Assembly (NCBI GenBank): GCA_021816925.1
Contig: JAKAWQ010000003.1
Span: 62,001 to 126,000 of the forward strand
Direction of reading: 5' to 3'
Length of the DNA stretch: 64,000 nucleotides
Source: Pseudomonadota bacterium
GTDB taxonomy: Bacteria; Pseudomonadota; Alphaproteobacteria; Acetobacterales; Acetobacteraceae
Shown: piece after piece, positions 34,298 through 53,725 of the stretch
Numbering within the stretch: position 1 is the stretch's first letter
Layout: every line of letters starts with the position of its first letter
Notes under the pieces: generated by a model
The model's database searches: none
Told to the model about the DNA's origin: nothing
The model's input: only the letters and a program-made list of their open reading frames with translations
Position numbers and translations under genes: made by a program

Positions 34298-34675
34298 TTA
34301 CTTGACTTCGACAGTGGCGCCCTGCTCTTCCAGCACCTTCCTGATCTTCTCCGCCTCTTCCTTGTTCACCCCCTCCTTGACGGTCTTCGGGGCGCCGTCA
34401 ACGAGATCCTTGGCCTCCTTGAGGCCGAGCCCGGTGATCGTCCGGATCTCCTTGATCACGTTGATCTTCTTCTCACCGACCTTGCTCAGGATAACGGTGA
34501 ATTCGGTCTGCTCCTCCACCGCGGGCGCGGCGGCCGCGGCCGCCGGCTGAGCGGCAACCGCCACCGGCGCGGCGGCCGAGACGCCCCACTTCGTCTCCAG
34601 AAGCTTCGAAAGTTCCGCAGCCTCCAGCACCGTCAGGCCGGAGAGCTCGTCAACCAGCTTCGCCAAGTCTGCCAT
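34298..34675 (-). CDS. rplL: Ribosomal protein bL12 (L7/L12)
   Basis: A 125-aa stalk protein: an N-terminal dimerisation helix pair, an Ala/Pro hinge (~residues 34-52) and the C-terminal factor-binding domain ([23 protein letters not shown]). Dimers bind the tail of L10 and recruit translation GTPases. It lies 51 nt after rplJ and 137 nt before rpoB, an interval without a gene or obvious terminator. Confidence 0.98.
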
Positions 34676-34726
34676 GTTCGCGTGTCCTGTTAGATTAAGC
34701 GTCGATTGGGTTCTTGCAAGCCCCGG

Positions 34727-35233: not shown

Positions 35234-35922
35234 GCGAGGCTCCCGAGATCAATCCTAACGCCTGGCCCCATGGTGGAGGACAAGGCCACCTTCTTGAGAT
35301 AAGTGCCCTTCGCCCCGGTGGGCTTGGCCCTTTGAATGGCCTCGACAAAGGCGCGGACGTTGGCGGCGAGGCGATCCTCGGGGAAGCTTGCCTTGCCGAT
35401 CCCGGCATGCACGATGCCGGCCTTTTCGGCACGGAACTCCACCTGTCCGGCCTTCGCGGCGGCCACCGCGCCCTTGATATCCATCGTCACGGTGCCGAGG
35501 CGGGGGTTCGGCATGAGGCCGCGGGGCCCGAGGATTTTGCCGAGCCGGCCGACCAGGGCCATGAGGTCGGGGGTGGCGAGGCAGCGGTCGAAGTTGATCT
35601 CGCCGGCCTGGACCTTCTCGGCAAGGTCCTCGGCGCCGACGACGTCCGCGCCGGCGGCGAGCGCCTCCTCGGCCTTGGCGCCGCGGGCGAAGACGCCGAT
35701 GCGCACGGTGCGGCCGGTGCCGTGCGGCAGGCTCACCATGCCGCGGACCATCTGGTCCGCGTGGCGGGGATCGATGCCGAGGTTCATGGCAAGCTCGACC
35801 GTTTCGTCGAACTTGGCCTTGGCGTTCTCTTTCACCAGCCGGATCGCCTCGGGGAGGGGGTAGGCGCGGGTGGGGTCCAGCCCCGCGTAGGCGGCGCGCA
35901 GGCGCTTGCCGATGCGGGCCAT
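35230..35922 (-). CDS. rplA: Ribosomal protein uL1
   Basis: A 230-aa L1 stalk protein, which binds 23S rRNA and, in many bacteria, represses its own operon mRNA. The signature around [11 protein letters not shown] is present. It starts 2 nt after rplK and overlaps rplJ, so the four ribosomal genes are packed into one translation unit. Confidence 0.98.
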
Positions 35923-35924
35923 GC

Positions 35925-36356
35925 TCAGCCCTCCACCCGGAGGCCCATGGAGCGGGCGGAGCCGGCGAGCATGCGGACGGCGGCCTCGATGTCAGTCGTG
36001 TTCATGTCCTGGAGCTTCCGGGCGGCGATCTCGCGGAGCTGCGCGATGGTAACGGTGCCGACCGGGGCGCCCTTGCCGGTGGCGGCGGCGCCTTTTTCCA
36101 CCTTCGCCGCCTTGAAGAGGAAGTAGCTGTTGGGCGGTGTCTTGGTGACGAAGGTGAAGGTGCGGTCGGCGAAGGCGGTGATGACGACGGGGATCGGCAT
36201 CCCGGGCTCGAGGTTCTGGGTGGCGGCGTTGAACTCCTTGCAGAAGGCGATGATGTTGAGGCCGCGCTGGCCGAGCGCGGGGCCGACGGGCGGCGAGGGA
36301 TTGGCCTTGCCGGCCGGAATCTGGAGTTTGATGTAGCCCGCGATCTTCTTCGCCAT
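35925..36356 (-). CDS. rplK: Ribosomal protein uL11
   Basis: A 143-aa L11 that forms the GTPase-associated centre with 23S rRNA and is needed for RelA sensing of uncharged tRNA. The N-terminus [21 protein letters not shown] is diagnostic. A longer frame exists, but the ATG at 36356 gives the family length. It is the first gene of the operon here; the secE-nusG pair that usually precedes it is absent, replaced by a structured leader and an unrelated gene pair. Confidence 0.98.
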
Positions 36357-36661
36357 CCCTGGTCTCCGTGCATGCAGGCACCCGGAAGCGATTTTCCTCG
36401 GGGGCGGTGCAAGCCAAGGACCGCGGTCCAAACGAGCGCGGCGCCGCGGGAAGCTTCCCGGGGCGGCGCGGTCTCCCGCGTTCCAACAAGGGGCGGGCGG
36501 ATATACGATGCGGGGCGGGGAGTCCAGAGCTTTTTCCCGAGGGGTGGTACGCGTGCATGCGTGTCCGCTCGGAATTGCCCCCGGGTCGGGCCGTTGCATC
36601 AGCGGGAGGTGCGGCTGACCGCGGAGCCGGTCGGCGAGCCGGGCTCCGGCGATCGCCGATG
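36357..36661 (-). promoter_or_regulatory. Leader and probable promoter of the rplK-rpoC operon
   Basis: No gene lies in these 305 nt. Three structures stand out: a perfect palindrome GGACCGCGGTCC (36418-36429); a nested hairpin with arms GCGCCGC/GCGGCGC around GGGAAGCTTCCC (36441-36469); and an A/T-rich patch whose minus strand reads TATATC (36500-36505), a possible -10, with TCTGGA 17 nt upstream as a weak -35. The hairpins would be in the mRNA leader and may serve L1-type feedback or attenuation. Promoter boxes are guesses. Confidence 0.4.
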
Positions 36662-36898
36662 TCAGTCCTTGCCGCGATCGCGCTCAGGTGGCGGCAGGCG
36701 GCGGGGCCTCGGCGGGCGAAGTTCCGCAGGTGGTTGCACGCGCAAGCCAGCGAGCATGCCTTCAAGGCGGCTTACGCGATCGCGAAGGTCGGCAACTTCC
36801 TGGCTCATCCTGGCGACATCGAGCGCGGCGTTGCGAACCTGCTCATCGAGCAGAAGAACCTGCTTGAGGGCCGTGATCGCCTCTCGATAGAGGCTCAC
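36662..36898 (-). CDS. Small coiled-coil protein, unknown
   Basis: A 78-aa protein. Residues ~5-52 form a heptad-like helix ([23 protein letters not shown]) followed by a Pro/Arg-rich basic tail. Its start overlaps the stop of the ribbon-helix-helix gene by 4 nt, so the two products are made together and may form a complex. I do not recognise the family. It could be the partner of a toxin-antitoxin-like or plasmid-partition-like pair, but no toxin fold is visible. Confidence 0.65.
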
Positions 36899-37197
36899 CG
36901 GTTTGCCGCTCGCCGCGCACCTTGCCTCGGGCCGTGCGGCTGCACCGAATTCCCGAGAAGCCGGGTTACCGTCTTGTGGCTCTCATCGGCGATGCGGAGC
37001 GTTTCCGGATGGACCTCGTTCAACGCATCGATCAGGGTTCGCAGCTCCGCGGCTTCCGCTTCGGCGCCGGCGTCGTATGCCTGGACGGCGCGGCGGACCA
37101 TCTCGCCGGCGGAGACCCCGAGCGCCCGGGCCTTGGCATCGAGCGCGGCCCGCTCGTCGGCAGACATCAAAACCATCAAACGGGTTGGTGCGGACAT
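36895..37197 (-). CDS. Ribbon-helix-helix (CopG-like) regulator
   Basis: A 100-aa protein whose N-terminal ~50 residues fit the RHH fold: the beta-strand T-R-L-M-V-L-M, helix A D-E-R-A-A-L-D-A-K-A-R-A-L, and G-V-S-A-G-E-M-V-R-R-A-V as helix B. A second helical part follows. RHH dimers bind palindromes, and a perfect 9/9 inverted repeat lies 22 nt upstream, so autoregulation is very likely. ATG 37197 was preferred over the adjacent GTG 37200. It is divergent from the large helicase gene and may control that promoter too. Confidence 0.75.
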   Translation of the reverse strand: MSAPTRLMVLMSADERAALDAKARALGVSAGEMVRRAVQAYDAGAEAEAAELRTLIDALNEVHPETLRIADESHKTVTRLLGNSVQPHGPRQGARRAANR

Positions 37198-37219
37198 CAC
37201 GGTCGGCCTTGGGCATGGC

Positions 37220-37243
37220 TATACATGCAGATGAGCATGTATA
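37220..37243. promoter_or_regulatory. Palindromic operator between RHH and helicase genes
   Basis: TATACATGC, a 6-nt spacer, then GCATGTATA: perfect 9-bp arms in an A/T-rich island within GC-rich DNA. The arms contain TATA-like -10 sequences, so a bound repressor would block transcription of the RHH pair. It lies 130 nt before the helicase start, close enough to affect that divergent promoter. Confidence 0.7.
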
Positions 37244-37373
37244 AGCCGGAGAGGGCGCGCGCAAGACCGGTTATGGTCGGCCGGAAGGGCGGGCCGTTTT
37301 GGAGCGTTGTTGAAACTTTAAGGGCGGCCGATAGAGTTCCTTGATTGCGCTCGGCGGTTGAGGGGCGGACCTG

Positions 37374-40300
37374 ATGGATGTCTTCGATCTCGATCGGAAG
37401 CTGATCGAGGATTATGCAGCGTTCACGCGCTCCTTCACGACGATCCGGGCGGAGGATCTCCGGCGGCAGGTCGGGGCGATCTATGCGAGCCGGCGCTTCT
37501 GGCCGGAGCCGCTGATCAGCATCAATCCGCATTTCGAGCGCGGAGCGAGCGTCGAGGCGCTGGTGCGGGACGGGCAGCTCTGCGCCGAGACCGGGCAGGT
37601 GTTCCGGCTTCCGGGCGAGCCGCTCAAATTGTTCAAGCACCAGCAGCAGGCGCTGGCGAAGGCGGCGGCGCGGCAGAGCTTCGTCGTCACGACCGGGACG
37701 GGCTCGGGCAAGTCGCTTTGCTTCTTCCTGCCGATCATCGATGTGGCGATCCGGGCAAGAGCGGCCGGAGAGGCACGGCGGACGCGGGCTATCGTGGTCT
37801 ATCCGATGAATGCACTCGCCAACAGCCAGATGGAGGAGCTGAAGCGATACGTCGGACAATCCGGCCTCGAGGAGCGGCTTGCCCCCACCTTCGCGCGCTA
37901 TACCGGGCAGGAGGACGACGACGAGCGGCAGAAGATCCGGGAGGCGAAGCCCGACGTCCTGCTCACCAACTTCATGATGCTCGAGCTTCTGATGACACGG
38001 CAGAACGAGCTCGACCAGCAGGTGATCGCAAACGCGCAAGGGCTCGATTTCATCGTGCTCGACGAGCTGCACACCTATCGCGGCCGGCAAGGCGCGGACG
38101 TGGCGATGCTGGTGCGGCGGCTGAAGGATCGGCTCTGCCGGGAGAAGGAACCGGTCGCGATCGGGACCTCGGCGACGATGGCAAGCGAGGATGCGGCGGA
38201 TGCGGCGGATGCTGTGGCGCGGGTTGCCTCGCGGCTGTTCGGAACACGCATCACGGCTGCTGCGGTGATCGGGGAGAGCCTGGAGAGGGCGACGGATCCT
38301 GAGAGGAGAGTCGGCTCGCTCGGAAGCGAACTCAGGGACGCGGTGGAGGGGGAAGTTCCCGAGGCGCCGAGCGATGAGGTTCTGCGCTCCCATCCGCTCG
38401 CGATCTGGATCGAGCTCGAGATCGGACTCGAGGACGCGCAGCACCTGAAGCGCCGGCGACCCGGGACACTCGAGGCGGCGGCGAAGCGCCTGGCCGACAG
38501 GACGGGCGCGGATCTGGGGCGCTGCCGCTCGGCACTGAAGGCCATGCTGATCGCGATGAGCCGGCCGGCGAACGAGCGAGGCGGGGCGGGCGACCGGGCG
38601 TTCCTCGCTTTCAAGCTGCACCAATTCATTTCCGGCGCCGGAACGCTCTACGCGACGATCGGGGAGAGTGAATCCGGCCGGGGGCGCCGGGTGATGCTGG
38701 AAGGGCAGCTTTTCGACCCGGAAGATCCGGCGGCGCGGCTCTATCCCACGTTCTTCTGCCGGGGCTGCGGGCAGGAATATCATCCGGTGCGGCTCACCGA
38801 GCGGGCGCCGGTGCCGCGACCGATCGACGAGGTGCCGCTCAAGGAGGAAGAGGAGGAGCAGAAATCCGGCTATCTGATGCCGGTGCCGGACAGCGATCCG
38901 GAATTCACGTTCGACGGGTCGCTCGAAGGGTACCCGGAGGAGTGGATCGACCCGGCGGGGAAGATCAAGAGCGCGCTCAAGCGCTACCGGCCAGAGAAGA
39001 TCGTGGTGGGCGCGGGCGGGGTGGTGGAAGACGGCGGGCGGCAGGCGTGGTTCATACCGGGAAAGTTCCGGTTCTGCCTCCGGTGCAAGGACCAGCCGCC
39101 CGTCGGGGCGCGCGAGATCAACAAGCTCGCCGGCCTTTCGGCCGAGGGAAGAAGCTCGGCGACGACGCTGCTCGTTTCGAGCGCGCTCCGCTGGATGAAC
39201 GGCGCCGAGTCGGCGCTCCCCACGGGCAAGCGGAAGGTGCTCGGGTTCACCGACAACCGGCAGGACGCGGCGCTGCAGGCCGGGCACTTCAACGATTTCG
39301 TGTTCGTCACGCTGCTCAGGGCGGCGATCCTGGCAGCGGTGGAGCGGACGGGACCGGAGGGGCTCGGAGAGGAAGAGTTTGCGCGGCACGTTCAGTCGGC
39401 GCTCGGGTTCGAGGCAGCCAACCGGAAGCGGAGGGTAGAGTGGATGGCGGATCCGGACGCCAAAGGGGTCGGCCAGCAGGACGCCGAGCGAGTGCTGCGG
39501 CGAGTGCTGGCGTACCGCGTGTGGGCGGATCAGCGGCGGGGATGGCGCTTCACCAATCCGAACCTCGAAGATCTCCGGCTCGTGCGCGCCGAATACCCGG
39601 CGCTGGCAGAGCTTGCGTCGGATGACGAGGCGTTCCTCGGGGCGCCGCAAGAACTGCGCGACGCGACCAAGGAGAAACGGCGCGAGGCCCTTTTGATTCT
39701 GCTCGATGCCCTGAGGCAGGGGCTTGCGGTGACGGCGGATGCGCTCGACCCGGCGGCGGTGGAGGAGGTTGCCCGGGCGGCACGACAGGGCTTGCGCGAG
39801 CCGTGGTTGATTTCGCAACAGGAGGAGGAAAGGGCGCGTGTCGCCGCGGCGCTGATCATCGACGCGCCGAAAAAGGATGAGGCGGGCCTGCGCGGGGAGG
39901 TCCTGATTCTGCGGGGCGGCGCGAGGAGCCGGCTGGCGCGGGAACTTCGGCGCGCGCGGCTCTGGGGCCAGCGGCTGGACACGACGACCTATCGCGCGGT
40001 GCTGGAGGCGCTGCTCAAGGCAGCGGAGACATATCAACTGGTCCGGCGCGTGGCGACCAGCTTCGATGTCGAGGGCTGGCGGCTTGCGGCCAACGCGATG
40101 CGGCTCACGGCGGCGGAGGGGCGCGCGGACGGACGCGACGCCAACCGCTATTTCGTCGCGCTCTACCGGGCGCTGGCGGATGCGCTGGCTGCCGGCGGCG
40201 AGGGGCTCTTCGGGATCGACGGGCGGGCACACACGGCGCAAGTGGACCAGGAGCAGCGCCGATGGCGCGAGTGGCGGTTCCGGTGGGGCGAGGAGGATCA

Positions 40301-42544
40301 GGCAGAGATTGCGAAAAATCGAGAAGAGATGCGAAAGGTCGGGGAGCCGACGGGCTTCCTGCCGGCGCTCTTCTGCTCGCCGACGATGGAGCTCGGGGTC
40401 GATATCTCGGCGCTCAATACGGTCTATCTCCGCAACGTACCGCCGACGCCGGCGAATTACGCGCAGAGATCGGGACGAGCAGGCCGGGCCGGGCAGGCGG
40501 CGCTGGTGGTGGCCTATTGCGCGGCGCAAAGCCCGCATGATCAGTATTTTTTCGAGGACCCGGCGAGGATGGTGAGCGGCTCGGTGCGGCCGCCGGCGAT
40601 CGAGCTGGCGAACCGGGACCTCGTGGAAGCGCATCTCCACGCGGTGTGGCTGGCCGAGACGGGCGTGCCGCTGGAGGCGGATATTCCGCACGTGCTGGCG
40701 CTCCGCGAGAACGAGTTGCCCGTGCAGAAGGAAGTGACGGAGGCGGTCGGCGCGCCGGATGTGACAGCGCGGGCGTCGGCCAGGATGGAAAGGATCCTCG
40801 AGGGCATCGCGGGCGAGATCGGGGCGGCGCCCTGGGCGGAGGACCGGGCCAAGCTGGCGCGCGATGTGGCGGGGAATGCAGCGCAGCGGTTCTCTCAGGC
40901 GTTCGACCGCTGGCGGCAGCTTTATCAGGGCGCGCGGGCGCAACTCCAGGAAGCGAACCGCAAATCGGAGGCGCACGGGATCTCGGCAAAAGAGCGCGAC
41001 AACGCCAAGCGCGAGCAGGCGCAGGCGCACGAGCAGATCAAGCTTCTGGAGCGGGGCAACGCGAACGGGGGCTCGGACTTCTACACCTACCGGTATCTGG
41101 CAACCGAGGGGTTCCTGCCCGGATACAACTTTCCGAGGCTTCCGCTCTATGCGTTCGTTCCCGAATCTAGATGGGGCGGGCCGAAGGCGGCCTATCTGCA
41201 ACGGGCGCGGTTCGTCGCGATTTCGGAATTCGGTCCGGGCAGCCTGATCTATCACGAGGGGCGGGCGTACCGGGTGGTGAAGGCGAAGCTGCCGCCGGAC
41301 GCGAGAACCGAGGCCGGCGGGCAACTTGCGACGCGAACATTCTTCATCTGCGATCAGTGTGGGGCAGCGCACGAGGGAGAAGAACCCGAACGCTGCCATG
41401 CGTGCGGGGCGCCGATGGCGGGCGTTCATCCGGTGCGGAACGTGCTTCGGATCGACAACGTGGAAACGAGGCCAGCGGAGCGGATCACGGCGAATGACGA
41501 AGAGCGGCAGCGGCGCGGCTTCGAGATCCAAACGGTCTTCACTTGGCCAAGGCGGGACGGGGCGCTTGACGTGACGGCGGCCGAGGCGAGCGACGGGGAG
41601 GGGCTGATCCTTTCGCTCGACTATGCCGCAGGGGCAACGATCAGCCGGCTCAACAAGGGCCTCCGGCGGCGGCGGGAGAAGAGCATCCTCGGGTTCGGAA
41701 TCGATCCGGCGACCGGGCGCTGGGCGCGTGGCGCGCTCGACGACGAGAACGAGGAAGAGGCGGAGGGCGCGGTCAGGCAACGGGTGGTGCCGATCGTGCA
41801 GGACAACAAGAACGCGATTCTCTTCCGCCCAGCGGGCGAGCCCCCGGGCGCCGAGGCGATGGCGACATTGCAATACGCGCTGGCGCGCGGGCTCGAACTC
41901 GAATTCCAGCTCGAAGAAGGAGAACTTCTGACCGAGCCGGTGCCGGGGGCCGAGCGGCGGCGCGCGATTCTTGCCTACGAGGCGACGGAAGGCGGAGCGG
42001 GCGTGCTCGGTCGGCTGGCGAGCGAGGCGGACGCTCTTCTGCGCGTGGCGAAGGCGGCGCTTCGGCTCATGCATTATCGCGAAGGAGCGATCGGCAAGGC
42101 GATCGCGGCGGCGGATCCCACGCAACTCAAGGAGGAGCCGGGGGCGTGCGTGCGCGGGTGCTACCGGTGCCTGCTTTCCTACTACAACCAGCCCGACCAC
42201 GAGCAAATCGACCGGAGAAACGCGGAGGCGCTCGGCGTGCTGCTGCGGCTGGCGAGGAGCGAGGTCACGCCCCTCGCCCGGTGCGGCGAGCCGGCGGAGG
42301 ACGAGGCCTGGGCAGCCGCCTTCCGCCGCTGGGGGCTGCCCTTGCCGAAGAGCCAAGCGCTCGTCCTGGGCGAGCGAAGATTCCGCTTCGTCTGGCCGGA
42401 GCACAGGGTTGCGGCGGCCATCGGGGCGATCGGCGAGGAGGAGCGAAGCGCGGCGGAGGCGCGCGGCTTCGAGATCGTCGGGCTGCCGGACGCGCCTGGC
42501 GAAGCGGCGCCGGCCGGGCTCGCGGAACTCTTCGGGGTCGCGGC

Positions 42545-42548
<4 letters not shown>
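37374..42548 (+). CDS. DEAD/DEAH helicase with DUF1998 domain (DISARM DrmA/DrmB-like)
   Basis: A 1724-aa superfamily 2 helicase. Walker A T-G-T-G-S-G-K-S is at 107-114, motif II D-E-L-H at 230-233, G-T-S-A-T-M at 264-269, and motif VI Q-R-S-G-R-A-G-R near 1031. Cys pairs (C-R-G-C near 462, C-L-R-C near 567, C-D-Q-C and C-H-A-C near 1330-1350) suggest zinc sites. The C-terminal C-V-R-G-C-Y-R-C-L-L-S-Y-Y-N-Q (from ~1591) is the DUF1998/MrfA zinc motif. In DISARM, helicase (DrmA) and DUF1998 (DrmB) are separate proteins; here both are in one chain, so it may replace the two or be MrfA-like. GAGGGG precedes the ATG. The stop overlaps the next start (GTGA). Defence function is inferred from context. 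Confidence 0.8.
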
Positions 42549-45331
<2,783 letters not shown>

Positions 45332-45402
45332 GCGGTGGGACGATCGGCGCATGCCGTGCGGCCGGGCGACCGGACGAAGCATTGACCCGTTTCGGATGAC
45401 TC

Positions 45403-45439
45403 TTGACGGCATAGAAAATCTATGACAAAAAACGTCATA
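45403..45439. promoter_or_regulatory. A/T-rich overlapping inverted repeats, possible promoter-operator
   Basis: CATAGA-AAA-TCTATG (45410-45424) overlaps TATGAC...GTCATA (arms 45421-45426 and 45434-45439). A TTGACG that could be a -35 lies at 45403. This 40-nt A/T-rich patch in a GC-rich context lies directly before the toxin remnant and was probably the promoter-operator of that toxin-antitoxin module. The -10 box is not clear. The rest of 45332-45402 shows nothing. Confidence 0.5.
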
Positions 45440-45578
45440 TGCCTCGGGCGACGCTCGTCCTGCTCCCAAAGGAGACCACCGGCATTATGGTGGGCGGCAG
45501 GAGTCCTGCAGGTTCACCACGCCCGAACGGCTGGTGCTTGACTTCCTGGCGGACGTGCGCGCGGCGCGCCGCCGGTGA
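45426..45578 (+). pseudogene. Truncated DUF6516-like toxin remnant
   Basis: In the frame ending at TGA 45576, about 50 codons read G-D-H-R-H-Y-G-G-R, then R-F-T-T-P-E-R-L-V-L-D-F-L-A-D-V-R. This matches the C-terminal half of DUF6516-type proteins, which are encoded just before HVO_A0114-type HTH antitoxins. An upstream TGA (45423) removes the N-terminal half, and no start codon is available in frame, so it is a dead toxin gene. The gap to the antitoxin (45579-45756) shows no further gene. Confidence 0.65.
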
Positions 45579-45756
45579 CAACAAGTCCGGCGCTGCCATG
45601 GGCGGACTTGAATTCGTGCGGCTCGTCAGAACCGCGAAGGCGGGCACCCGGAAACCGCATGGACCTCCGCGATAGCCGGGGACGACGTGTGGAGAGAGGT
45701 GAAATCCGATGCATGGATCTGGTTCCCTGGAATCGCCGTGCGAGGAGGATCACGGG

Positions 45757-46134
45757 ATGGCCGATGTGAAAGTGCCCGATGTGAAGGTGCCCGATGTGAA
45801 AATAATTGTCGGCGGGGGCCTCGAAGATGACGCTGCCGCCTTTGTCCGTGCCTGGCGCCGCGCGGAGCGCGGCGGAAAGGTCAACGAGCGCGTGCTGGCC
45901 TTCGAGAGCTGGGAAGGGCTTGCCTCGGTCATGACCGGCGAGCGCTACCGCCTGCTGCGCCACCTGCACGGGCATCCCGAGCCTTCCGTCTCGGCCCTTG
46001 CGCGCGCCCTCGGCCGGCAATATCGGCGGGTGCACGCGGATGTTGCCGCCCTGGAGGAGGCTGGGCTGCTCGACCGCTCGGAAGGAGAGGTTCGTGCGAC
46101 CGCCGATCGAATCCGGGCCGAAATCGAGCTTTGA
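45757..46134 (+). CDS. HVO_A0114-type winged-helix protein (orphan antitoxin)
   Basis: A 125-aa protein. Residues ~48-110 form a winged helix of the HVO_A0114/MarR-like group: F-E-S-W-E-G-L, R-L-L-R-H-L-H, S-A-L-A-R-A-L-G-R, V-A-A-L-E-E-A-G-L-L. The N-terminus has three copies of D-V-K-V-P or D-V-K from a 15-nt tandem repeat. AGGAGG lies 8 nt before the ATG. The family acts as antitoxin to a DUF6516-like toxin; only a remnant of that is left upstream, so this gene may have lost its partner or taken over regulation of the methylase gene 97 nt downstream. Confidence 0.75.
   Translation: MADVKVPDVKVPDVKIIVGGGLEDDAAAFVRAWRRAERGGKVNERVLAFESWEGLASVMTGERYRLLRHLHGHPEPSVSALARALGRQYRRVHADVAALEEAGLLDRSEGEVRATADRIRAEIEL
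45763..45801 (+). repeat. 15-nt tandem repeat (2.6 copies)
   Basis: GATGTGAAAGTGCCC at 45763-45777 is repeated with one change at 45778-45792, then partly (GATGTGAAA) at 45793-45801. It encodes D-V-K-V-P units at the start of the antitoxin and probably arose by slippage. Confidence 0.85.
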
Positions 46135-46231
46135 CCGGGGCGTGGAGCCGGTGCTGCCGACGGGCGTGCCGCCGGAGGTGAAGCCGGGCGTGATCACGTC
46201 TTCAATCCTCGTGCCGGCGAGCGCCTGAGGG

Positions 46232-49200
46232 ATGGCGCGTTCCCCGCGCGCGGCAAGGCCGGGCGCGGCGACCATCACCATCGAGGGGGCGCTGATCGGT
46301 GCCGCGATGGTTTCGCGCATCGCCGCGCAGCCGGACGACGAGAAGACGCGCGCTGCCTATGGAATCCCGAAGGGGCTTGGGCTGCGCGAGGAGATCTCCC
46401 GGTACTTCCGGATCGGCCAGGCGGTGTTCGGCGAATTCTCGGCGAGTCCCCAGCCTTCCGGGGCGCGGACGACCGGGTTCACGGAGGCGTTCCTGAGCCA
46501 GGCGCTCGGGTTCACGGACATCGCGCGGCGGGGCACGCGGCAGTTGGGCGAGCGAGCGTTTCCGGTAACGCTAGAAGCGCTCGGCGGGCGCGTGCCCGTT
46601 CTCGTGGTGCCGCCGGAGGATGATCTCGACCGGGCGAGCGAGCATCTCGGGCTCCCATTGCGCTCGCGCAATGGGGACCCGGTGCCGGGCGATCACCGGC
46701 GGCGCTCGGCTGCCTCGGCGTTGCAGGAATGGCTCAACGCGAACGAGGAAGCCGTCTGGGGCCTTGCGTGCAACGGCGAGCGGCTCCGGCTCTTGCGCCG
46801 GAACGCGAGCCTCACCCGCCCCGCCTACATCGAGGTGGACCTCAGGCGGATCTTCGAGGGCGAGGCGTTCGCGGATTTCACGGCGCTCTGGCTTCTCCTG
46901 CACGCGCGCTCCTTCGGAGCGCCGGGAAGCCCGCCGCTCGAGAGCAGGCTCGAAGCCTGGCGCGAGGCCGGAAGCAGGGAAGGCATCGCCGCGCGCGAGC
47001 GGCTCCGCGAAGGCGTGGAAGCGGCCCTCCTCGCACTCGGCAGCGGCTTCCTCGCCGATCCCGCCAATGCCGGGCTCAGCGCGCGGCTGGAACCGGGCGC
47101 GCTGCCGCTTCCCGAGTTCTTCGGCCAGTTGCTGCGCCTGGTCTATCGGCTGATCTTCCTGCTGACGGCGGAGGAGCGCGGCCTCCTCCATCCGCCCGAC
47201 GCCGCGGCCGATGCGCGCCGCCTCTACGAGGAGGGCTATTCGCTCGGGCGCCTCCGCGAGCGGGCGGTCCGGCGTGCCGCGCGGGACCGGCACCACGATG
47301 CGTGGTCGGGGCTGCTGATCGTGTTCTCAGCACTCGCGCGCGGAGAGAAGCGGCTCGGGCTGCCGGCGCTCGACGGCCTCTTCGCGGCCGGAACGATCCC
47401 GGACCTCGAAGCGTTGCGGCTTTCAAACCAATCGCTCCTGGAGGCCATCCATCGGCTGGCCTGGCTCCGCGAGGGCGGCGCGCTCGTTCCCGTCAACTGG
47501 CGGGACATGGAGACCGAGGAGCTGGGCTCGGTCTATGAATCCCTGCTCGAGCTCACCCCGCGCCTGGCAGACGACGGGCGGGCGCTCGCCTTCGCGAACG
47601 GGGCGGAGCAGAAGGGCAACGCGCGAAAGACCACCGGCAGCTACTACACGCCCGCTGCGCTGGTGCAGGCGCTGCTCGATTCCGCGCTCGATCCGGTTCT
47701 CGATCGGGTGGAGGCGGAGGCAGAGGATCCGGCGGCGGCACTGCTCGGCGTCACGGTGCTCGACCCGGCCTGCGGCTCGGGACATTTCCTGCTCGCGGCG
47801 GGGCGGCGCGTCGCGACGCGTCTGGCCAGCGCGCGCTCGCTTGGCGTCGCCTCGGCCGAGGACTACCGGCACGCGCTGCGCGACGTGGCGCGGAGCTGCC
47901 TCTTCGGCGTCGATCGCAACCCGATGGCGGTCGAGCTGACGAAGGTCGCGCTCTGGATCGAGACGGTCGATCCCGGCAGGCCGCTCGGCTTCCTCGATGC
48001 CAACATCCGCTGCGGGGATTCGCTGCTCGGCCTGTTCGATCTGAATTCGCTGGAGGAGGGGATTCCCGATGCGGCATACAAGCCTCTGACCGGCGACGAC
48101 AAGGCGACTGCCAAATACTACGCCACGCGCAACCGGAACGAGCGGGAAGGCCAGGGCGACCTTCTCCTGCGCGAGGGCAAGCTGCCGGCGCCGGCGCTCG
48201 CGGCGGCAAGGGCGGAAGCGCGCGCGCTGCCGGAGGATTCTCCCGAGGAGATCGCCGAGAAGCGGCGGCGGTTCGAGCAGGTGCAGGCCGCGCCGCTCAG
48301 CTTTGCGTGGAACGAGGCCGCCGATCTTTATGTGGCGGCCTTTCTTCTGCCGAAGACGGGCGGGGCGCCGGCGCTCGGGCGGGAACCGACGGTGCCGACG
48401 ACGGGCGATGTGCGGCGGGTGCTGGCTTCGAGGCAGGTGCATCCGCCGCTGGTCGCGCGTGCGGTGGACGCCGCGCGGGCGGCGCGCGCCTTCCACTGGC
48501 CGCTCGAGTTTCCCGAGGTGATGGCGCGGGGAGGATTCGATGTCGTGCTCGGCAATCCGCCGTGGGAGCGGATCAAGCTCCAGGAGCAGGAGTTCTTCGC
48601 CGCGCTGGACCCGGAGATTGCCGCGGCGCCGAACGCCGCCGCGCGCGGGCGGCTGATCGCGGCACTCGCGAAGGCCGAGCCCGGCACGCGGGAGCGCGCG
48701 CTGCATGAGGCGTTCGAGACGGCGAAACGGCTCGCCGAGGCCTCCTCGGTCTTCGCGCGCGAGAGCGGGAGGTTTCCGCTGACCGGGCGCGGCGACGTGA
48801 ACACCTACGCGCTCTTCGCCGAGCTTTTTTCCGAACTGGCGAGCCCGCGCGGGCACGCCGGGGTGATCGTGCCGACCGGTATCGCGACCGATGCGACCAC
48901 CGCGCCCTTCTTCGCCGCCCTGATCGACGGCAAGCAGCTGGCGCGGCTGGTGGATTTTGAGAACCGCGATGCGATCTTTCCTGCGGTCCACCGCAGCTAC
49001 AAATTCAGCCTGCTGACCATCGGCCGGGAGATCGGCGCGGCGGAATTCGCCTTCTTCCTCACCGACGCGACGCAATGGGCCGAACCGGAGCGCCGCTTCA
49101 CCCTATCGCCCGCCGACATCGCGCGGATCAACCCGAACACGAGGACCGCGCCGGTGTTCCGCGCGCGAGCCGATGCGGACTTGACGGCGAAAATCTACGC

Positions 49201-50197
49201 CCGCGTGCCGGTGCTGATCGACGAGGCGAAGGGCAAGGCAGGCAATCCTTGGGGCGTGTCGTTCGCGCGCCTGTTCGACATGTCCAACGACAGCAGCCTG
49301 TTCCGCACGGCGGCGCAATTGCACGCGGCGGGATTTGCGCGCGACGGGACGGACTGGCGTAACGACACGGCGCGCTACGTGCCGCTCTACGAAGCGAAGA
49401 TGATCCACCAGTTCGACCATCGCTGGGCCACCTATGACGGCACGGAGGCCCGCGACGCGACCGCGGCCGAGAAGCAGAACCCCGATTTCGAGCCGCCCCC
49501 GCGCTACTGGGTGCCCGAGGCCGAAGTCGCCGAGCGCCTGCGCGCCAAAAGCTGGCCGCGCGGCTGGCTGATGGGCTGGCGGGATATCTGCCGCTCGACG
49601 GACGAACGCACGGTGATCGCGACGGCGTTTCCGCGAGTGGGGGTCAACCACAAGACTCCGCTGTTCTTCGTTGAGCACCCACCCCGACTGGCGGCGGCGT
49701 TGCTGGCAAATTGGCTATCTCTGACGCTCGACTTCACAGCGCGGCAGAAGATTGGCGGCACCTCCCTGACCTATTTCTATCTCAAACAGTTCCCCATCCT
49801 TCCGCCCTCCGCCTACACCGAAGCCGACCTCGCCTTCATCGTCCCGCGCGTGCTGGAACTGAGCTACACCAGCCACGCCATGGCGCCGTTCGCGCACGAC
49901 CTCGGCTACAGCGGAAAAGAATTCGGCTGGGACGAGGAAAGGCGGGCGCTGCTGCGGGCGGAGCTTGATGCCTTCCATGCCCGCAAATACGGCCTGACGC
50001 GGGACGAACTCCGCTACATCCTCGACCCCGAGGACGCGATGGGCGCGGGCTATCCCTCCGAGACGTTCCGGGTGCTGAAGAAGAACGAAAAAGCCCGCTT
50101 CGGCGAGTACCGCACCGCGCGGCTCGTTCTGGCCGCGTGGGATGGGATGGAAACAGAATGGCCGGCGCCTGCCCTTTTCCGGGCCGGAAGTTCCTGA
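46232..50197 (+). CDS. N6-adenine DNA methylase, Eco57I/DrmMI-like
   Basis: A 1321-aa class I adenine methyltransferase. The N-terminus (I-T-I-E-G-A-L-I, G-L-R-E-E-I-S-R-Y-F-R-I-G-Q-A) is shared with large defence-island methylases. T-G-S-Y-Y-T-P near 469 begins the catalytic core, motif I is D-P-A-C-G-S-G-H-F-L near 511, and motif IV is N-P-P-W near 775. The C-terminal third should carry target recognition (G-G-T-S-L-T-Y-F-Y-L-K-Q-F-P-I-L-P-P). No nuclease motif is visible. In DISARM, DrmMI methylates host sites to mark self. GAGG is close to the ATG at 46232; an internal ATG (46307) would cut the conserved N-terminus. Confidence 0.85.
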   Translation: MARSPRAARPGAATITIEGALIGAAMVSRIAAQPDDEKTRAAYGIPKGLGLREEISRYFRIGQAVFGEFSASPQPSGARTTGFTEAFLSQALGFTDIARRGTRQLGERAFPVTLEALGGRVPVLVVPPEDDLDRASEHLGLPLRSRNGDPVPGDHRRRSAASALQEWLNANEEAVWGLACNGERLRLLRRNASLTRPAYIEVDLRRIFEGEAFADFTALWLLLHARSFGAPGSPPLESRLEAWREAGSREGIAARERLREGVEAALLALGSGFLADPANAGLSARLEPGALPLPEFFGQLLRLVYRLIFLLTAEERGLLHPPDAAADARRLYEEGYSLGRLRERAVRRAARDRHHDAWSGLLIVFSALARGEKRLGLPALDGLFAAGTIPDLEALRLSNQSLLEAIHRLAWLREGGALVPVNWRDMETEELGSVYESLLELTPRLADDGRALAFANGAEQKGNARKTTGSYYTPAALVQALLDSALDPVLDRVEAEAEDPAAALLGVTVLDPACGSGHFLLAAGRRVATRLASARSLGVASAEDYRHALRDVARSCLFGVDRNPMAVELTKVALWIETVDPGRPLGFLDANIRCGDSLLGLFDLNSLEEGIPDAAYKPLTGDDKATAKYYATRNRNEREGQGDLLLREGKLPAPALAAARAEARALPEDSPEEIAEKRRRFEQVQAAPLSFAWNEAADLYVAAFLLPKTGGAPALGREPTVPTTGDVRRVLASRQVHPPLVARAVDAARAARAFHWPLEFPEVMARGGFDVVLGNPPWERIKLQEQEFFAALDPEIAAAPNAAARGRLIAALAKAEPGTRERALHEAFETAKRLAEASSVFARESGRFPLTGRGDVNTYALFAELFSELASPRGHAGVIVPTGIATDATTAPFFAALIDGKQLARLVDFENRDAIFPAVHRSYKFSLLTIGREIGAAEFAFFLTDATQWAEPERRFTLSPADIARINPNTRTAPVFRARADADLTAKIYARVPVLIDEAKGKAGNPWGVSFARLFDMSNDSSLFRTAAQLHAAGFARDGTDWRNDTARYVPLYEAKMIHQFDHRWATYDGTEARDATAAEKQNPDFEPPPRYWVPEAEVAERLRAKSWPRGWLMGWRDICRSTDERTVIATAFPRVGVNHKTPLFFVEHPPRLAAALLANWLSLTLDFTARQKIGGTSLTYFYLKQFPILPPSAYTEADLAFIVPRVLELSYTSHAMAPFAHDLGYSGKEFGWDEERRALLRAELDAFHARKYGLTRDELRYILDPEDAMGAGYPSETFRVLKKNEKARFGEYRTARLVLAAWDGMETEWPAPALFRAGSS

Positions 50198-50209
50198 TAT
50201 GTTCTCAGC

Positions 50210-51571
50210 ATGGAAAACCCGCGCACGCAGCGAATCCGCGATCCGGTCCACGGCCTGATCGTCTTCCGGGCCGATGATCGGCTGGACTAGCTCGCCTGGG
50301 CGCTGCTTGACACGCCAGAGTTCCAGCGACTGCGCCGTATCCGCCAGCTTGGCGTCTCGGATTTCGCGTTCCCGAGCGCGACCCATACGCGCTTCGCCCA
50401 TTCCATCGGCGTGTTCCACACCGCGCGCACGCTGGTGCGCATCATCGAGCGCGAGATCGGGGCTGCGCAATATGACCCTGGGCGGGCCGAGATAGCCGTG
50501 ATCGCGGCGCTGCTGCACGATATCGGGCACGGACCGTTCAGCCATGCGTTCCAGGACGTGCAGAAGTCGCTCACCGTGCACAAGCCGCATGAGCAATGGA
50601 GCGCGGAAATCATCCGCAATCCAAACGGCAGCATCCCCACACTGCTGGACGCGCACTGGCCGAAGGGAGGCTTCTGCGGTGAGGTCGCTAAACTGCTGGA
50701 GGCCGAAGACCCGATCGACATCTACCACGCCGTCGTCTCCAGCGCGTTCGACGCCGACCGGTTGGATTACCTGCTGCGCGATCGCCTCATGACCGGCAGC
50801 GGCGCAGGCGCGATCGATTTCGACTGGCTGAGGGAGCAGGTGCGCGTCCGCGAGATCGAGATCGAGGCGCCCGACAAAGAGGGAGGCGGGAGTCCGTTGA
50901 AGGTGCCGACCTTCTGCTTCGACCCCAAGGCACTGCCGGCGGCCGAGCAATTCCTGCTCGCGCGGTACACGCTGCACGAGCAGGTTTATTTCCACAAGAC
51001 GACCCGCTGCATCGAGCAGATGATCGGCAAGCTGCTCAGGGGCGTCGCGCGGACCGGACTCGACGAGTCCGACCCGCTGAGCCGCTTCCTCAGTCCGGGC
51101 GGCGCGACGGTCAGCAACTACCTGGCGCTCGATGACGCGGTCGTGGTGGACGCGTTCCGGCGCGCCGCTGCGGCGCCGGATGCGGCGCTCGCCGACCTCG
51201 CACGCCGGCTCCGCGACCGGGATCTGTACAAGACGCTTGACCTCGGATCGTTCGGCCATGACGAAGGCGTCCAGCGGCGGGAGGCAAGGCGAATCGACCG
51301 GGACTTCAGAGCCAAGATCGAGGGCGAGCAGATCATCAAGGACGAGGGCGCGGCGGTGAGCATCTACACCCAGATCGGCGGGGATGACGAGCGCGCGCAC
51401 AAGCGGCTGCACATCCTCGATGCGAGGAAAGGGCCGGTCGAGATCACCGACGTTTCGACCCTCATCAGGACGCTCAGGGATCCGAAGAAATTCACGCGGT
51501 ACTACTTCGAACAGGACGCCGATCGCGACGCCGCGCGGCAACGGAGAGGAGAGCACCATGAAGGAACGTGA
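50210..51571 (+). pseudogene. HD-domain phosphohydrolase with in-frame amber codon
   Basis: Starting at ATG 50210, the frame encodes a YwfO/dGTPase-like HD protein of 453 codons: I-R-D-P-V-H-G-L-I-V-F, T-P-E-F-Q-R-L-R-R-I-R-Q-L-G-V, T-H-T-R-F-A-H-S-I-G-V (H64), L-L-H-D-I-G-H-G-P-F-S-H (H103-D104). Codon 27 is TAG (50288-50290), directly before L-A-W-A-L-L-D, and the frame is otherwise intact to 51571. Re-initiation at GTG 50411 would lose H64, a metal ligand. So it is either a fresh nonsense mutation, a sequencing error or amber readthrough. Its end overlaps the YwgA-like gene by 14 nt. Confidence 0.8.
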
Positions 51572-52085
51572 GGATGTCGTGGCGGCGGTGCTGGAGGCGG
51601 CGGGAGGGGAGCTGATCGGGCGAGTCAGGCTGCAGAAGGCGGTCTATCTGATGGATCGGCTGGGGCTGGGGAGCGGTTTCACCTTCGATTACCATCATTT
51701 CGGGCCGTTTTCGCGCGACCTGGACAACGCGGTCGCAGACGCGAAGGCGTTCGGCCTGGTGGAGGAAGTGTTCGAACAGCGGCAGAGCGACGGCGCAACG
51801 TACAGCATCTTCCGGCTGAAAGTGCAGGCGAAGCCGGACGCCTTCGGCGAGCTCGGCACCAAGAGAGCTGGGGAAGTCGTGCGCCTGTTCGCCGCGACGA
51901 ACGTGACGGTGCTCGAACTCGCCGCGACCGTGGACTGGCTCTGGCGATTCGGGAAATGCAAGGACTGGCGCAGCGAAATCACGAAGCGCAAGGGCGTCAA
52001 GGTGCAAGGGGGGCGGCTTGATCAGGCGGTTGTACTGCTTGGGCAGTTGGATCTTACGCTGCCCGCGGTGCGCGCGCCGGCTTGA
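51558..52085 (+). CDS. YwgA-like protein
   Basis: A 175-aa soluble protein with the pattern R-V-R-L-Q-K-A-V-Y-L-M-D-R-L-G-L, then Y-H-H-F-G-P-F-S-R-D-L-D-N-A-V, as in YwgA and the related Panacea/SocA-like fold. In Bacillus subtilis ywgA adjoins the HD gene ywfO, and here too the HD gene is immediately upstream and overlapping, which supports a functional pair. GAGGAG precedes the ATG at 51558. The molecular role is unknown; related folds act as antitoxins or adaptors. Confidence 0.7.
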   Translation: MKEREDVVAAVLEAAGGELIGRVRLQKAVYLMDRLGLGSGFTFDYHHFGPFSRDLDNAVADAKAFGLVEEVFEQRQSDGATYSIFRLKVQAKPDAFGELGTKRAGEVVRLFAATNVTVLELAATVDWLWRFGKCKDWRSEITKRKGVKVQGGRLDQAVVLLGQLDLTLPAVRAPA

Positions 52086-52106
52086 GGGGGCCGGCCGCGG
52101 GGAGAT

Positions 52107-52973
52107 GTGATTACCCCCGAGAACCCGCCCGGCTTCGTGGTCCGCACGGAGGCGGAGAAGGCGGCCGCGGACAACGGCTTCCGGCTGGCGCGGGGGGCGG
52201 AGGGCGGCTGGATGCGGTTCGGCTCGACGACGGCACGGGGAGAAATCTGGATCGGCGGTGCCTCCCCGGGCGGGCCCTGGTTTCTCGCGGTCGAACGCGG
52301 GGAGGTGGCGGCGGAGATCGGCGCGGAGGCGTGCGCAGTTCCCGGCGCGCCCGGCGCGGCGGCGTTCGCGTTCGAGACGCTGGCGCCGCTCTATGCCGCG
52401 CTCGATCGGGCGTGGCGGCTCGGGGTGAGCCTGCCGGACGTGCCGCTCCGCCGGTTCCATGCCAGGGCCGGGAACCTGCCACGGGCGACGGAGGCCGAGC
52501 GGCTGGTGGTGCAGAGGATCGGGCAGGATCTGTTCCGCGAGGCGCTGCTGGCGTACTGGGGCGGGCGCTGCGCGGTGAGCGGGATCGAGGATCCGGCGCT
52601 GCTGCGCGCCTCGCATATCGTGCCGTGGGCGGAATGCGCGAGCGACGCGGAGCGGCTCGACGTGCACAACGGCCTGCTGCTCTCGGCGCTCTGGGACGCG
52701 GCGTTCGATGCAGGGCTGGTGAGCTTCGCGGACGAGGGCGCGGCGCTGGTGTCGGGCGGGCTCGGCGCGCGGGCGCGCGAGGCGCTCGGGCTTCGCGCGG
52801 GAGCGATGGTCAGGATCGGGGGGCTTTCGGCCGGGCACCGCGCGCGGCTCGCCTGGCACCGGGCGCGCTACGGGTTTGCGGCAGCGGCGCGCCCCCACCC
52901 GGCGCCCGGACGGTGTCCGGGCGCTACCCTCTCCTGCGGTGCGGGCGAGGGACAGGGAGGGCGGACGCCGTGA
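52107..52973 (+). CDS. HNH endonuclease-domain protein (HNH_2 type)
   Basis: A 288-aa protein. The first ~120 residues form an unassigned domain. Residues ~135-215 are an HNH_2-type nuclease: R-C-A-V-S-G-I (C155), A-S-H-I-V-P-W-A (H170), D-V-H-N-G-L-L-L (H187-N188), W-D-A-A-F-D-A-G-L-V-S-F. It would cut DNA, perhaps modified or foreign DNA, and lies at the edge of the defence island. The start is GTG 52107 after GGGGAG. The last ~25 residues are encoded by a repeat-like palindrome and are probably not part of the fold. Confidence 0.82.
   Translation: MITPENPPGFVVRTEAEKAAADNGFRLARGAEGGWMRFGSTTARGEIWIGGASPGGPWFLAVERGEVAAEIGAEACAVPGAPGAAAFAFETLAPLYAALDRAWRLGVSLPDVPLRRFHARAGNLPRATEAERLVVQRIGQDLFREALLAYWGGRCAVSGIEDPALLRASHIVPWAECASDAERLDVHNGLLLSALWDAAFDAGLVSFADEGAALVSGGLGARAREALGLRAGAMVRIGGLSAGHRARLAWHRARYGFAAAARPHPAPGRCPGATLSCGAGEGQGGRTP
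52902..52924. repeat. REP-like palindrome at the 3' end of the HNH gene
   Basis: GCGCCCGGAC-GGT-GTCCGGGCGC, perfect 10-nt arms with a 3-nt loop, followed by CCCTCTCCTGCG and GGGCGAGGGA. The latter resembles the CCCTCTCCC-type repeat that sits in the broken nat gene. It lies inside the coding frame and supplies the C-terminal tail. Confidence 0.6.
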
Positions 52974-53083
52974 GGCCGGAGCGGTAAGGCGGGGCAGGGT
53001 GCGGCGTCGGGCGGTACGAGCGGTTCCAGCGTCGCGATCAGCGGCGGCAGGCGCGCGCGGCGATTCCGAATGACCGCCCGCGA

Positions 53084-53725
53084 TCACTCCGGCGGAATCA
53101 GGCGCGCGGCGGTGTGTCGTTGGAGCGTATCGAAATCGACGCCGGGGGCCGTTTCGATGACGGAAAAACCCTGCGGCGTGACGTCGATGACGGCGAGGCT
53201 GGTGTAGATGCGCGAGACCGCGCCGGGCGCGGTGAGGGGGTAGGAGCAGCGCCCGACGAGGCGGGCGGTACCCTCCTTCGTCGTGTGCTCCATCGCGACC
53301 CAGAGGCGCCTGGCGCCGACCGCGAGGTCCATCGCGCCGCCGACGGCGGAGGCGGCGTCGTTGCGGCCGGTGGCCCAGTTGGCGAGATCGCCGTTCTCCG
53401 CCACCTCGAAGGCGCCGAGCACGCAGAGATCGAGATGGCCGCCGCGGATGATCGCGAAACTGTCCGCGTGATGGACGAAAGCGCCGCCGGGGCGGAGTGT
53501 CACGTGCTGCTTGCCGGCATTGATGAGCCAGGGATCGACGGCCTCGGGCGAAGGCGCGGGGCCGATGCCGAGCACGCCGTTTTCGGAATGGAAGATGACC
53601 TCGCGCCCGGGCGGAACGTAGTCGGCGATCAGGGTCGGGATGCCGATGCCGAGATTGACGTACCAGCCTTCGGGAATGTCGCGGGCGACGCGGGCGGCGA
53701 TCTCGGGGCGGGAAAATCCGGCCAT
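53084..53725 (-). CDS. 3-oxoacid CoA-transferase subunit B
   Basis: A 213-aa beta subunit. The catalytic Glu is E48 in the S-E-N-G motif, which forms the CoA thioester intermediate. G-I-G-I-P-T and M-E-H-T-T-K-E-G are also conserved. With subunit A it transfers CoA from succinyl-CoA to 3-oxoadipate (PcaIJ) or acetoacetate (ScoAB); the sequence does not separate the two. It lies 6 nt after the A subunit. No other beta-ketoadipate genes are in view, so acetoacetate or a branched oxoacid is possible. Confidence 0.93.
   Translation of the reverse strand: MAGFSRPEIAARVARDIPEGWYVNLGIGIPTLIADYVPPGREVIFHSENGVLGIGPAPSPEAVDPWLINAGKQHVTLRPGGAFVHHADSFAIIRGGHLDLCVLGAFEVAENGDLANWATGRNDAASAVGGAMDLAVGARRLWVAMEHTTKEGTARLVGRCSYPLTAPGAVSRIYTSLAVIDVTPQGFSVIETAPGVDFDTLQRHTAARLIPPE

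What the first reader, a model, noticed from the sequence alone, without database searches (positions are those of the whole stretch)
37374..50197. DISARM-like locus with helicase and DUF1998 in a single protein and no DrmC
Three large genes (helicase-DUF1998 1724 aa, SNF2/RapA-like 928 aa, Eco57I-type methylase 1321 aa) recall class 1 DISARM, where DrmD, DrmMI, DrmA and DrmB act together. Here the DrmA helicase and DrmB DUF1998 parts appear as one chain, the phospholipase-D nuclease DrmC is absent, and the two helicases overlap by GTGA. This may be a distinct subtype, or a relative that uses MrfA-like helicase chemistry.
Basis: partly seen in the sequence, partly recalled or inferred. Interest (0 to 1): 0.75.

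Follow-up and report, generated by a model that had tools for sequence, protein, structure and literature searches.

The report
Phage-defence operon with swapped nuclease
This looks like a bacterial anti-virus operon of the recently described ARMADA kind in which the DNA-cutting domain fused to the main helicase has lost its active site and a separate cutting enzyme at the end of the operon has probably taken over.

Summary
The three genes are real, intact and overlap as described. They are not DISARM. The helicase fits Druantia DruE models (305 bits) far better than DrmA (56). Gene content and order (YprA helicase with fused DUF1998, RapA-like helicase, PglX-like methylase) are those published for ARMADA Type I (Bell et al., preprint, Sept 2025). 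Of 80 relatives fetched, 70 hold all three, always in this order and strand; 9 run off their contig, 1 is truncated.

New here: the helicase C-terminus aligns with the Vsr nuclease domain of other ARMADA I helicases, but its catalytic residues are gone throughout one large clade. HNH co-diverges with the helicase (rho 0.84), as the methylase does (0.82). An SMC ATPase from the variable slot before HNH does not (0.26).

I read it as an ARMADA I variant whose nuclease moved from cis to trans. Cleavage and phage defence are inferred. Here the HD gene in the slot has an early stop.

The parts
36528..53098 (.). Island: stretch without DNA similarity to two genomes of the same genus
   Evidence: blastn of window 24001-64000 against stretches of G134 and G058: matches stop at 36527 and resume at 53099
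36895..37200 (-). Small ribbon-helix-helix protein (antitoxin- or NikA-like), divergent from the operon
   Evidence: Pfam RHH_1 21.9 bits, NikA-like 19.0
37374..42548 (+). ArmC-like YprA-family SF2 helicase with fused DUF1998/MZB domain (1724 aa)
   Evidence: Pfam DEAD, Helicase_C, MZB; PADLOC DruE1 304.9 bits, DrmA 56.5
42282..42539 (+). Vsr-type nuclease domain without catalytic residues (helicase residues about 1637-1722)
   Evidence: Alignment with motif-bearing relatives, hhalign 99.9%; residue counts; fold comparison, moderate
42545..45331 (+). ArmA-like RapA/SNF2-type helicase (928 aa)
   Evidence: Pfam SNF2-rel_dom, Helicase_C; PADLOC DpdE PDLC02853 660 bits, DrmD 242
45709..46134 (+). 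HVO_A0114-family DNA-binding protein between helicase and methylase genes
   Evidence: Pfam HVO_A0114 72 bits; no relative in the other loci held
46232..50197 (+). ArmB-like Eco57I/PglX-type adenine methyltransferase (1321 aa), DPACGSG and NPPW motifs intact
   Evidence: Pfam Eco57I, N6_Mtase; PADLOC DrmMI 258.6 bits; motifs
50210..51571 (+). HD-domain phosphohydrolase-like slot gene, interrupted by an in-frame TAG at 50288-50290
   Evidence: Translation; Pfam HD and HD_assoc_2; homologs without a stop in 5 other loci
51558..52085 (+). Small slot protein with weak similarity to part of DarG, paired with HD
   Evidence: PADLOC DarG 34.2 bits, no Pfam match; found with HD in L014, L026, L027, L040, L049
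52107..52973 (+). HNH endonuclease (288 aa), proposed nuclease in trans
   Evidence: Pfam HNH_2; linked in 74 of 92 motif-less loci, 0 of 21 motif-bearing; HNH residues invariant in 34 aligned; HNH domain like VcaM4I

Best explanation
The locus is a restriction-like defence operon of the ARMADA Type I lineage in which the effector nuclease moved from cis to trans. Shown by comparison: a fixed core of YprA helicase, RapA-like helicase, adenine methylase and HNH protein; loss of the Vsr active site of the helicase and presence of the HNH gene in one clade; co-divergence of HNH with the core. Inferred: the methylase marks host DNA; the two helicases load on and move along unmarked incoming DNA; the helicase C-terminus, now only a fold, stays as a structural or docking piece; the HNH protein, whose nuclease domain resembles that of the modification-dependent enzyme VcaM4I but whose first ~110 residues matched no modified-base reader in the fold search, is brought in through that part and cuts. 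Genes in the slot between methylase and HNH are exchangeable accessories. In this genome the core is intact and the HD accessory probably dead.
For: Order and strand: 70 of 70 loci with all three genes. Complement: HNH linked in 74 of 92 loci without the Vsr motif and 0 of 21 with it. Of the 18 misses 13 are contig ends; L018 has a transposase gene after the methylase, L063 an SMC and then a gene that I read by eye as a DUF1016-type nuclease, L064 is truncated, L105 and L125 branch outside the HNH clade. In 398 Pseudomonadota genomes, 6 have an HNH match reaching into the N-terminal part: 4 carry the helicase, 1 has fragments of the second helicase and SMC beside it, 1 ends at a contig edge after a slot-type gene. 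The 7 motif-bearing genomes of that sample that I could read have none. L102 lacked the motif and HNH lay beyond the fetched stretch; it was then found. Trees: motif-less rows with HNH form one clade, 88 rows (SH 99), or 18 rows with L102 inside (SH-aLRT 95, mixture model). Distances over 55 loci: HNH-helicase 0.84, HNH-methylase 0.80, HNH-SNF2 0.89, helicase-methylase 0.82, each 0 of 500 permutations; slot SMC-helicase 0.26 in 17 loci. The HNH lies 300 bases or less from the methylase ORF in 18 of 57 loci, so it does not depend on the slot.
Against: No experiment. The swap is about one event on the tree, so the association has little independent replication. The motif pattern was widened after I saw sequences it had missed (10 then 21 motif-bearing loci). 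Motif-bearing loci were often read only 1.4-6 kb past the methylase, and one (L107) has a short annotated HNH gene of another kind near its second helicase. HNH also occurs without the core: 2 of 11 plasmid records whose match reaches the N-terminal part (L152 with SMC only, L153 beside a TIR gene). L079's HNH is about 27 kb away. Fold hits of the dead domain are moderate (best Z 6.9; no Foldseek E under 0.001). HNH motif regex fits 52 of 58; the other 6 were not inspected.
Confidence: 0.68

Rival explanations
1. The HNH gene is not part of the system: it is an independent defence gene, or belongs with the slot SMC as a Lamassu-like pair, that travels with the operon.
For: The slot SMC resembles LmuB (67.5 bits); an SMC-HNH pair without the core stands in Paracoccus versutus (L152) and an HNH beside a TIR gene in Rhizobium SU303 (L153).
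Against: HNH persists whatever fills the slot and when it is empty (18 of 57 loci); it co-diverges with the core (0.84) while SMC does not (0.26); SMC also occurs in 5 motif-bearing loci without HNH.
Confidence: 0.17
2. A distinct DISARM subtype.
For: Second helicase and methylase match DrmD and DrmMI models (242 and 259 bits).
Against: The helicase is DruE-like, the DISARM models stay under their cut-offs, there is no separate DrmB and no PLD gene; the published ARMADA Type I layout fits.
Confidence: 0.05
3. No nuclease is used: the system blocks phage DNA without cutting, as proposed for BREX (recalled), and the HNH has an accessory role.
For: The helicase active site is gone and no nuclease domain was matched in the methylase or second helicase. 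Restriction by ARMADA and DISARM is called unknown in PMC12904381 (passage).
Against: The HNH residues are invariant in 34 aligned proteins and the gene is nearly always kept with the core.
Confidence: 0.15
4. The copy in this genome is decaying and inactive.
For: The HD gene has an early stop and a regulator gene is inserted between helicase and methylase genes.
Against: All four core genes are open with their motifs, and the HD slot is absent from most relatives (present in 6 loci). The stop could be an assembly error.
Confidence: 0.2

Closest known systems
ARMADA Type I (Bell et al. 2025, PMC12458937)
   Same: YprA helicase with fused DUF1998, then BrxHII/RapA-like helicase, then PglX-like methylase; DruE-like helicase; C-terminal domain aligned with the Vsr domain of motif-bearing relatives
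   Different: Active-site residues of the C-terminal Vsr domain lost; separate HNH endonuclease added; variable slot between methylase and HNH. The HNH is not mentioned in the preprint's main text; supplements not read
ARMADA Type II (same preprint)
   Same: Same three protein kinds; shown there to protect E. coli without abortive death
   Different: There the YprA helicase comes third and a GajB-like helicase fused to a RelE-like domain follows; neither is so here
DISARM class 1
   Different: DrmA and DrmB are separate genes there and DrmC is a PLD nuclease; here one fused chain, no PLD, HNH instead
Druantia
   Same: DruE is the best-matching model of the helicase; Druantia I/II helicases also end in a predicted dead Vsr domain (PMC12458937)
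   Different: No other Druantia protein was recognised in the eight island proteins scanned; [quoted passage not shown]
VcaM4I and TagI (modification-dependent HNH restriction enzymes)
   Same: HNH domain: Z 15.3 with 34% identity over 130 residues, and Z 10.1; VcaM4I also by sequence, E 1.6e-32
   Different: The first ~110 residues found no confident structural match and did not align with VcaM4I or TagI

Membership tests
ARMADA Type I | YprA-type helicase with DUF1998 fused in one chain | tested here: met
   Pfam DEAD, Helicase_C and MZB in P0001; phmmer finds YprA/MrfA structures
ARMADA Type I | Helicase gene first, then BrxHII/RapA-like helicase, then PglX-like methylase | tested here: met
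   Window order; same in 70 of 70 relatives that hold all three
ARMADA Type I | Helicase closer to Druantia than to DISARM helicases | tested here: met
   PADLOC DruE 304.9 against DrmA 56.5 bits; by profile score, not by a tree with reference sequences
ARMADA Type I | Helicase falls in the published Type I clade (reference WP_108720193.1) | not testable with these tools
   The reference sequence could not be fetched; only relatives found here were placed in trees
ARMADA Type I | BrxA-like, beta-barrel and MarR-like inserts in the helicase | not tested
   No structure was predicted for that part
ARMADA Type I | C-terminal Vsr nuclease predicted active (described for its representatives, not stated as the criterion of the type) | tested here: not met
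   Domain aligned, but in 58 motif-less rows the His column is a gap in all and the Asp/Glu columns are mostly other residues; hence filed as a variant of the lineage, not a standard member
ARMADA Type II | Helicase third, followed by RelE-GajB fusion | tested here: not met
   Helicase is first; no GajB or RelE match among eight island proteins (of long PADLOC lists only the best 25 rows are shown)
DISARM class 1 | Separate DrmA and DrmB genes with models over cut-off | tested here: not met
   DrmA 13.7 of 999 bits and DrmD 282.7 of 610 in NCBIfam; one fused chain
DISARM class 1 | PLD nuclease DrmC | tested here: not met
   No PLD domain by Pfam in the eight island proteins
Dpd | DpdE and DpdJ over cut-off | tested here: not met
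   NCBIfam DpdE 188.1 of 500, DpdJ 77.3 of 800 bits, although one PADLOC DpdE model gives 660 bits
MrfA repair helicase | No conserved defence-type operon | tested here: not met
   Strictly conserved operon

The most novel reading that the evidence does not exclude
This clade is a modular platform: a translocating helicase-methylase core with one constant trans nuclease (HNH) and an exchangeable socket between methylase and HNH into which parts of other defence systems (LmuB-like SMC of Lamassu, PtuAB of Septu, GmrSD, HD with a DarG-like protein) are plugged as alternative sensors or helpers that act on the same HNH or core.
Probability: 0.3. Interest if true: 0.78.

Novelty: new variant of a known kind. 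Interest (0 to 1): 0.6.

Why it matters
How ARMADA, DISARM and related systems destroy phage DNA is called unknown in a 2026 review (passage, PMC12904381). A clade in which the fused nuclease died and a separate one arrived is a natural experiment: it names the likely executor, offers a single gene whose removal tests it, and suggests that the dead domain may be the docking site. It also gives a sequence rule (Vsr motif or HNH gene) for sorting ARMADA I operons, and shows a slot in which genes resembling parts of Lamassu, Septu and GmrSD systems are exchanged inside one operon.

Tried and rejected
DISARM subtype: rejected on profile scores and gene content. Dpd: one PADLOC DpdE model fits the second helicase end to end (660 bits), but curated DpdE and DpdJ cut-offs are not reached. 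Lone repair helicase with a IIG enzyme: rejected by conserved order.

HD as replacement nuclease: found in only 6 loci and broken here. HVO_A0114 as a component: found in no other locus held; a VapBC pair stands at the same junction in Acidithiobacillus caldus (L109), so the junction takes insertions. Slot SMC as partner of HNH: rejected as the general rule, though an SMC-HNH pair without the core exists (L152).

Island as an insertion between rplK and nusG: not supported. nusG is unlinked from rplA in this genome and both congeners, though linked in G003. Exact repeats at the island ends: longest 11 bases direct and 12 inverted, no better than chance in my judgement. Structural relatives of the HNH N-terminal part: only weak hits (T4 MotA domain Z 6.1, YgaC 5.9, frataxin 5.0), not used.

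Placing the helicase against ARMADA II of E. coli ATCC 8739 was dropped. A first motif pattern missed 11 motif-bearing loci; it was widened after reading C-termini. Rows dropped before trees: L020, L122, L059, L087, L056, L061, L095. L079, whose HNH is about 27 kb off, is counted as linked. L014 and L026 are near copies, and L066 and L067 have identical helicases.
Full report
What is there. Three large + strand ORFs stand at 37374-42548, 42545-45331 and 46232-50197. The first is an SF2 helicase with Helicase_C and MZB (DUF1998) in one chain; the second a RapA/SNF2-type helicase; the third an Eco57I-type adenine methylase. The first two share GTGA. Between the second and third lies a small HVO_A0114-type regulator (45709-46134). 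After them come an HD-domain gene with an in-frame TAG at 50288-50290, a 175-aa protein at 51558-52085 with weak DarG similarity and an HNH endonuclease gene at 52107-52973. DNA similarity to two congeners stops at 36527, just upstream of rplK, and resumes at 53099, so all of these lie in one 16.6-kb island.

Family. PADLOC models: helicase DruE1 304.9 bits, DrmA 56.5; second helicase DpdE PDLC02853 660.4, DrmD 242.1; methylase DrmMI 258.6. NCBIfam DISARM and Dpd models stay under their cut-offs. A preprint (PMC12458937) describes ARMADA Type I as YprA helicase first, then BrxHII-like, then PglX-like, with a DruE-like helicase carrying DUF1998 and a C-terminal Vsr nuclease predicted active; ARMADA II protected E. 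coli against phages. Of it I read parts 1-4 of 8 and the figure legends, plus passages. The window fits Type I in content and order. I could not fetch its reference protein, so membership rests on content, order and profile scores.

Conservation. A scan of species genomes with three aligned helicases confirmed 477 relatives, of which the best 80 were kept. 70 hold all three genes, all in the same order and strand; nine run off the contig and L064 is truncated. In 398 Pseudomonadota genomes 14 have the helicase at E 1e-120 or better, own genome included; in 150 genomes drawn from its family, 9 (E 1e-60). Methylase motif NPP[WYF] is present in 96 of 96 ORFs over 1000 aa and DP[AST]CG[ST]G in 89 of 96; both SNF2 patterns in 96 of 104.

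The dead nuclease. After the zinc-binding end of DUF1998 the window helicase has about 100 residues where motif-bearing relatives (Deinococcus, Nocardioides, Rhodococcus, cyanobacteria, an archaeon, Roseomonas) have ...LPDxAQ...PDFxY...VFxDGPHHD.... In 15 such rows the Glu, three Asp and His columns hold in 14 or 15 of 15. In 58 rows of the window's kind the Glu column keeps Glu in 5, the three Asp columns keep Asp in 4, 4 and 7, and the His column is a gap in 58 of 58. The two profiles align at 99.9% probability, E 4.7e-31 over 140 columns, about 40 of them the shared zinc end. An AlphaFold2 model from the 58 motif-less rows alone (mean pLDDT 84.5) ranks with a Toxoplasma mitoribosome protein (Z 6.9), I-Bth0305I (6.8), NGO0050 (6.7), Vsr 1cw0 (5.3) and Bax1 (5.2); Foldseek gave nothing under E 0.001. 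The fold match is supportive, not strong.

The HNH gene. Homologs of the window HNH follow the methylase in 57 of 77 loci in a first pass, window included. With longer stretches and a profile: of 92 loci without the Vsr motif 74 have it linked; of 21 with the motif none. The 18 misses: 13 contig ends; L018 (transposase gene after the methylase), L063 (SMC, then a gene that looks to me like a DUF1016 nuclease), L064 (truncated), and L105 and L125, which lost the motif separately. In five genomes of contig-end loci a full-length HNH lies on another contig (G554, G557, G559, G561, G562); in G556, G558 and G560 none was found. L079's HNH is about 27 kb away. Against the pattern: the motif regex was widened after inspection, many motif-bearing loci were read only 1.4-6 kb past the methylase, and L107 has a short annotated HNH gene of another kind. 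For the 7 motif-bearing Pseudomonadota genomes read here, the whole-genome search found no HNH reaching the N-terminal part; G217 has a domain-only match elsewhere.

Specificity. In the 398 genomes, 34 have an HNH match at E 1e-15, but only 6 reach into the N-terminal part: 4 carry the operon, G287 has SNF2 and SMC fragments beside it, and G380's contig ends after a slot-type CBS gene. In plasmids 41 records match; 11 of the 40 listed reach the N-terminal part, 9 of these with the operon, 2 without (L152 SMC-HNH; L153 HNH beside a TIR gene). In phage records there are three matches, none covering 80% of the protein.

History. A FastTree of 112 helicases without their C-terminal domain puts 88 motif-less rows in one clade (SH 99) with the motif-bearing rows outside (long-branch warnings, L102 outside). 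A mixture-model tree of 34 rows puts all 18 motif-less rows of this kind, L102 included, in one clade (SH-aLRT 95), with L121, motif-bearing, as sister. L102 (Hydrogenimonas) was motif-less with its HNH beyond the fetched stretch; across the record start the HNH was found (profile 152.8 bits). So loss of the active site and gain of HNH map to about the same branch: one event, not many. By record titles the HNH clade spans Pseudomonadota, Acidobacteriota, Myxococcota, Verrucomicrobiota, Gemmatimonadota, Desulfobacterota and Campylobacterota (phylum names mine).

Core or passenger. Over 55 loci, distance correlations are HNH-helicase 0.84, HNH-SNF2 0.89, HNH-methylase 0.80, helicase-methylase 0.82 and helicase-SNF2 0.92, each with 0 of 500 permutations as high. 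In 17 loci with the slot SMC: SMC-helicase 0.26 (3 of 500), SMC-HNH 0.17 (33 of 500), HNH-helicase 0.84. No housekeeping gene was used as control. HNH lies 300 bases or less from the methylase ORF in 18 of 57 loci.

The slot. Between methylase and HNH stand, in different loci: a 650-aa SMC-like ATPase resembling LmuB (profile matches in 36 loci, 5 of them motif-bearing); PtuA in L077 and PtuB in L089; GmrSD with HNH in L055, an M78 peptidase in L036, a CBS protein in L060; and HD with the DarG-like protein in six loci including the window. One protein each was scanned; other fillings are unnamed.

The HNH protein. 34 aligned proteins share the invariant residues RASH, NG and D..FD. The model (mean pLDDT 92.5) matches VcaM4I over residues 124-258 (Z 15.3, 34% identity) and TagI (Z 10.1); VcaM4I is also found by sequence (E 1.6e-32). 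The first ~110 residues have no confident match. That they dock on the helicase complex is inference.

Mechanism. Shown: gene content, order, residues, history. Inferred from the families: host marking by the methylase, DNA surveillance and translocation by two helicases, cutting by HNH. Not shown: activity of any part, methylation motif, phage range.

Print. Searches of the held library found ARMADA in three papers, of which I read parts of one and passages of two. HNH occurs once in the preprint's text, in its reference list. Its supplementary tables, which could list HNH, were not readable here.

Noticed in passing
window 50288-50290: In-frame TAG near the start of the HD gene; homologs in five other loci have no stop there. 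Real decay or assembly error is open.
   Followed up: partly
window 45709-46134: HVO_A0114-type regulator inserted between second helicase and methylase genes; a Phd/VapC pair stands at the same junction in Acidithiobacillus caldus (L109).
   Followed up: partly
L020 (own genome, contig C33): A full-length Druantia III DruE-like helicase (PADLOC 1877 bits) is encoded elsewhere in the same genome; ARMADA II and Druantia III are reported to synergise in PMC12458937.
   Followed up: partly
window 25753-36350: rpoC, rpoB, rplL, rplJ, rplA, rplK lie directly beside the island; nusG is on another contig here and in two congeners, though linked to rplA in G003 of the same family.
   Followed up: partly
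L152 9969-12756: LmuB-like SMC and HNH pair in Paracoccus versutus without helicase, SNF2 or methylase matches in the 24.7-kb stretch: possible two-gene system or relic.
   Followed up: partly
L153 11974-13883: HNH homolog directly before a TIR-domain gene in Rhizobium sp. SU303, without the operon.
   Followed up: no
L105, L125: Two ARMADA I-like helicases (Chlorohelix, Streptomyces) outside the HNH clade with a damaged Vsr motif and no HNH match.
   Followed up: partly
L106: Deinococcus radiodurans R1 plasmid MP1 carries an ARMADA I-like locus with Vsr motif kept, the methylase annotated as two CDS and McrBC genes downstream.
   Followed up: no
window 36895-37200: Divergent ribbon-helix-helix gene at the left end of the island; no homolog in the other loci held.
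   Followed up: no
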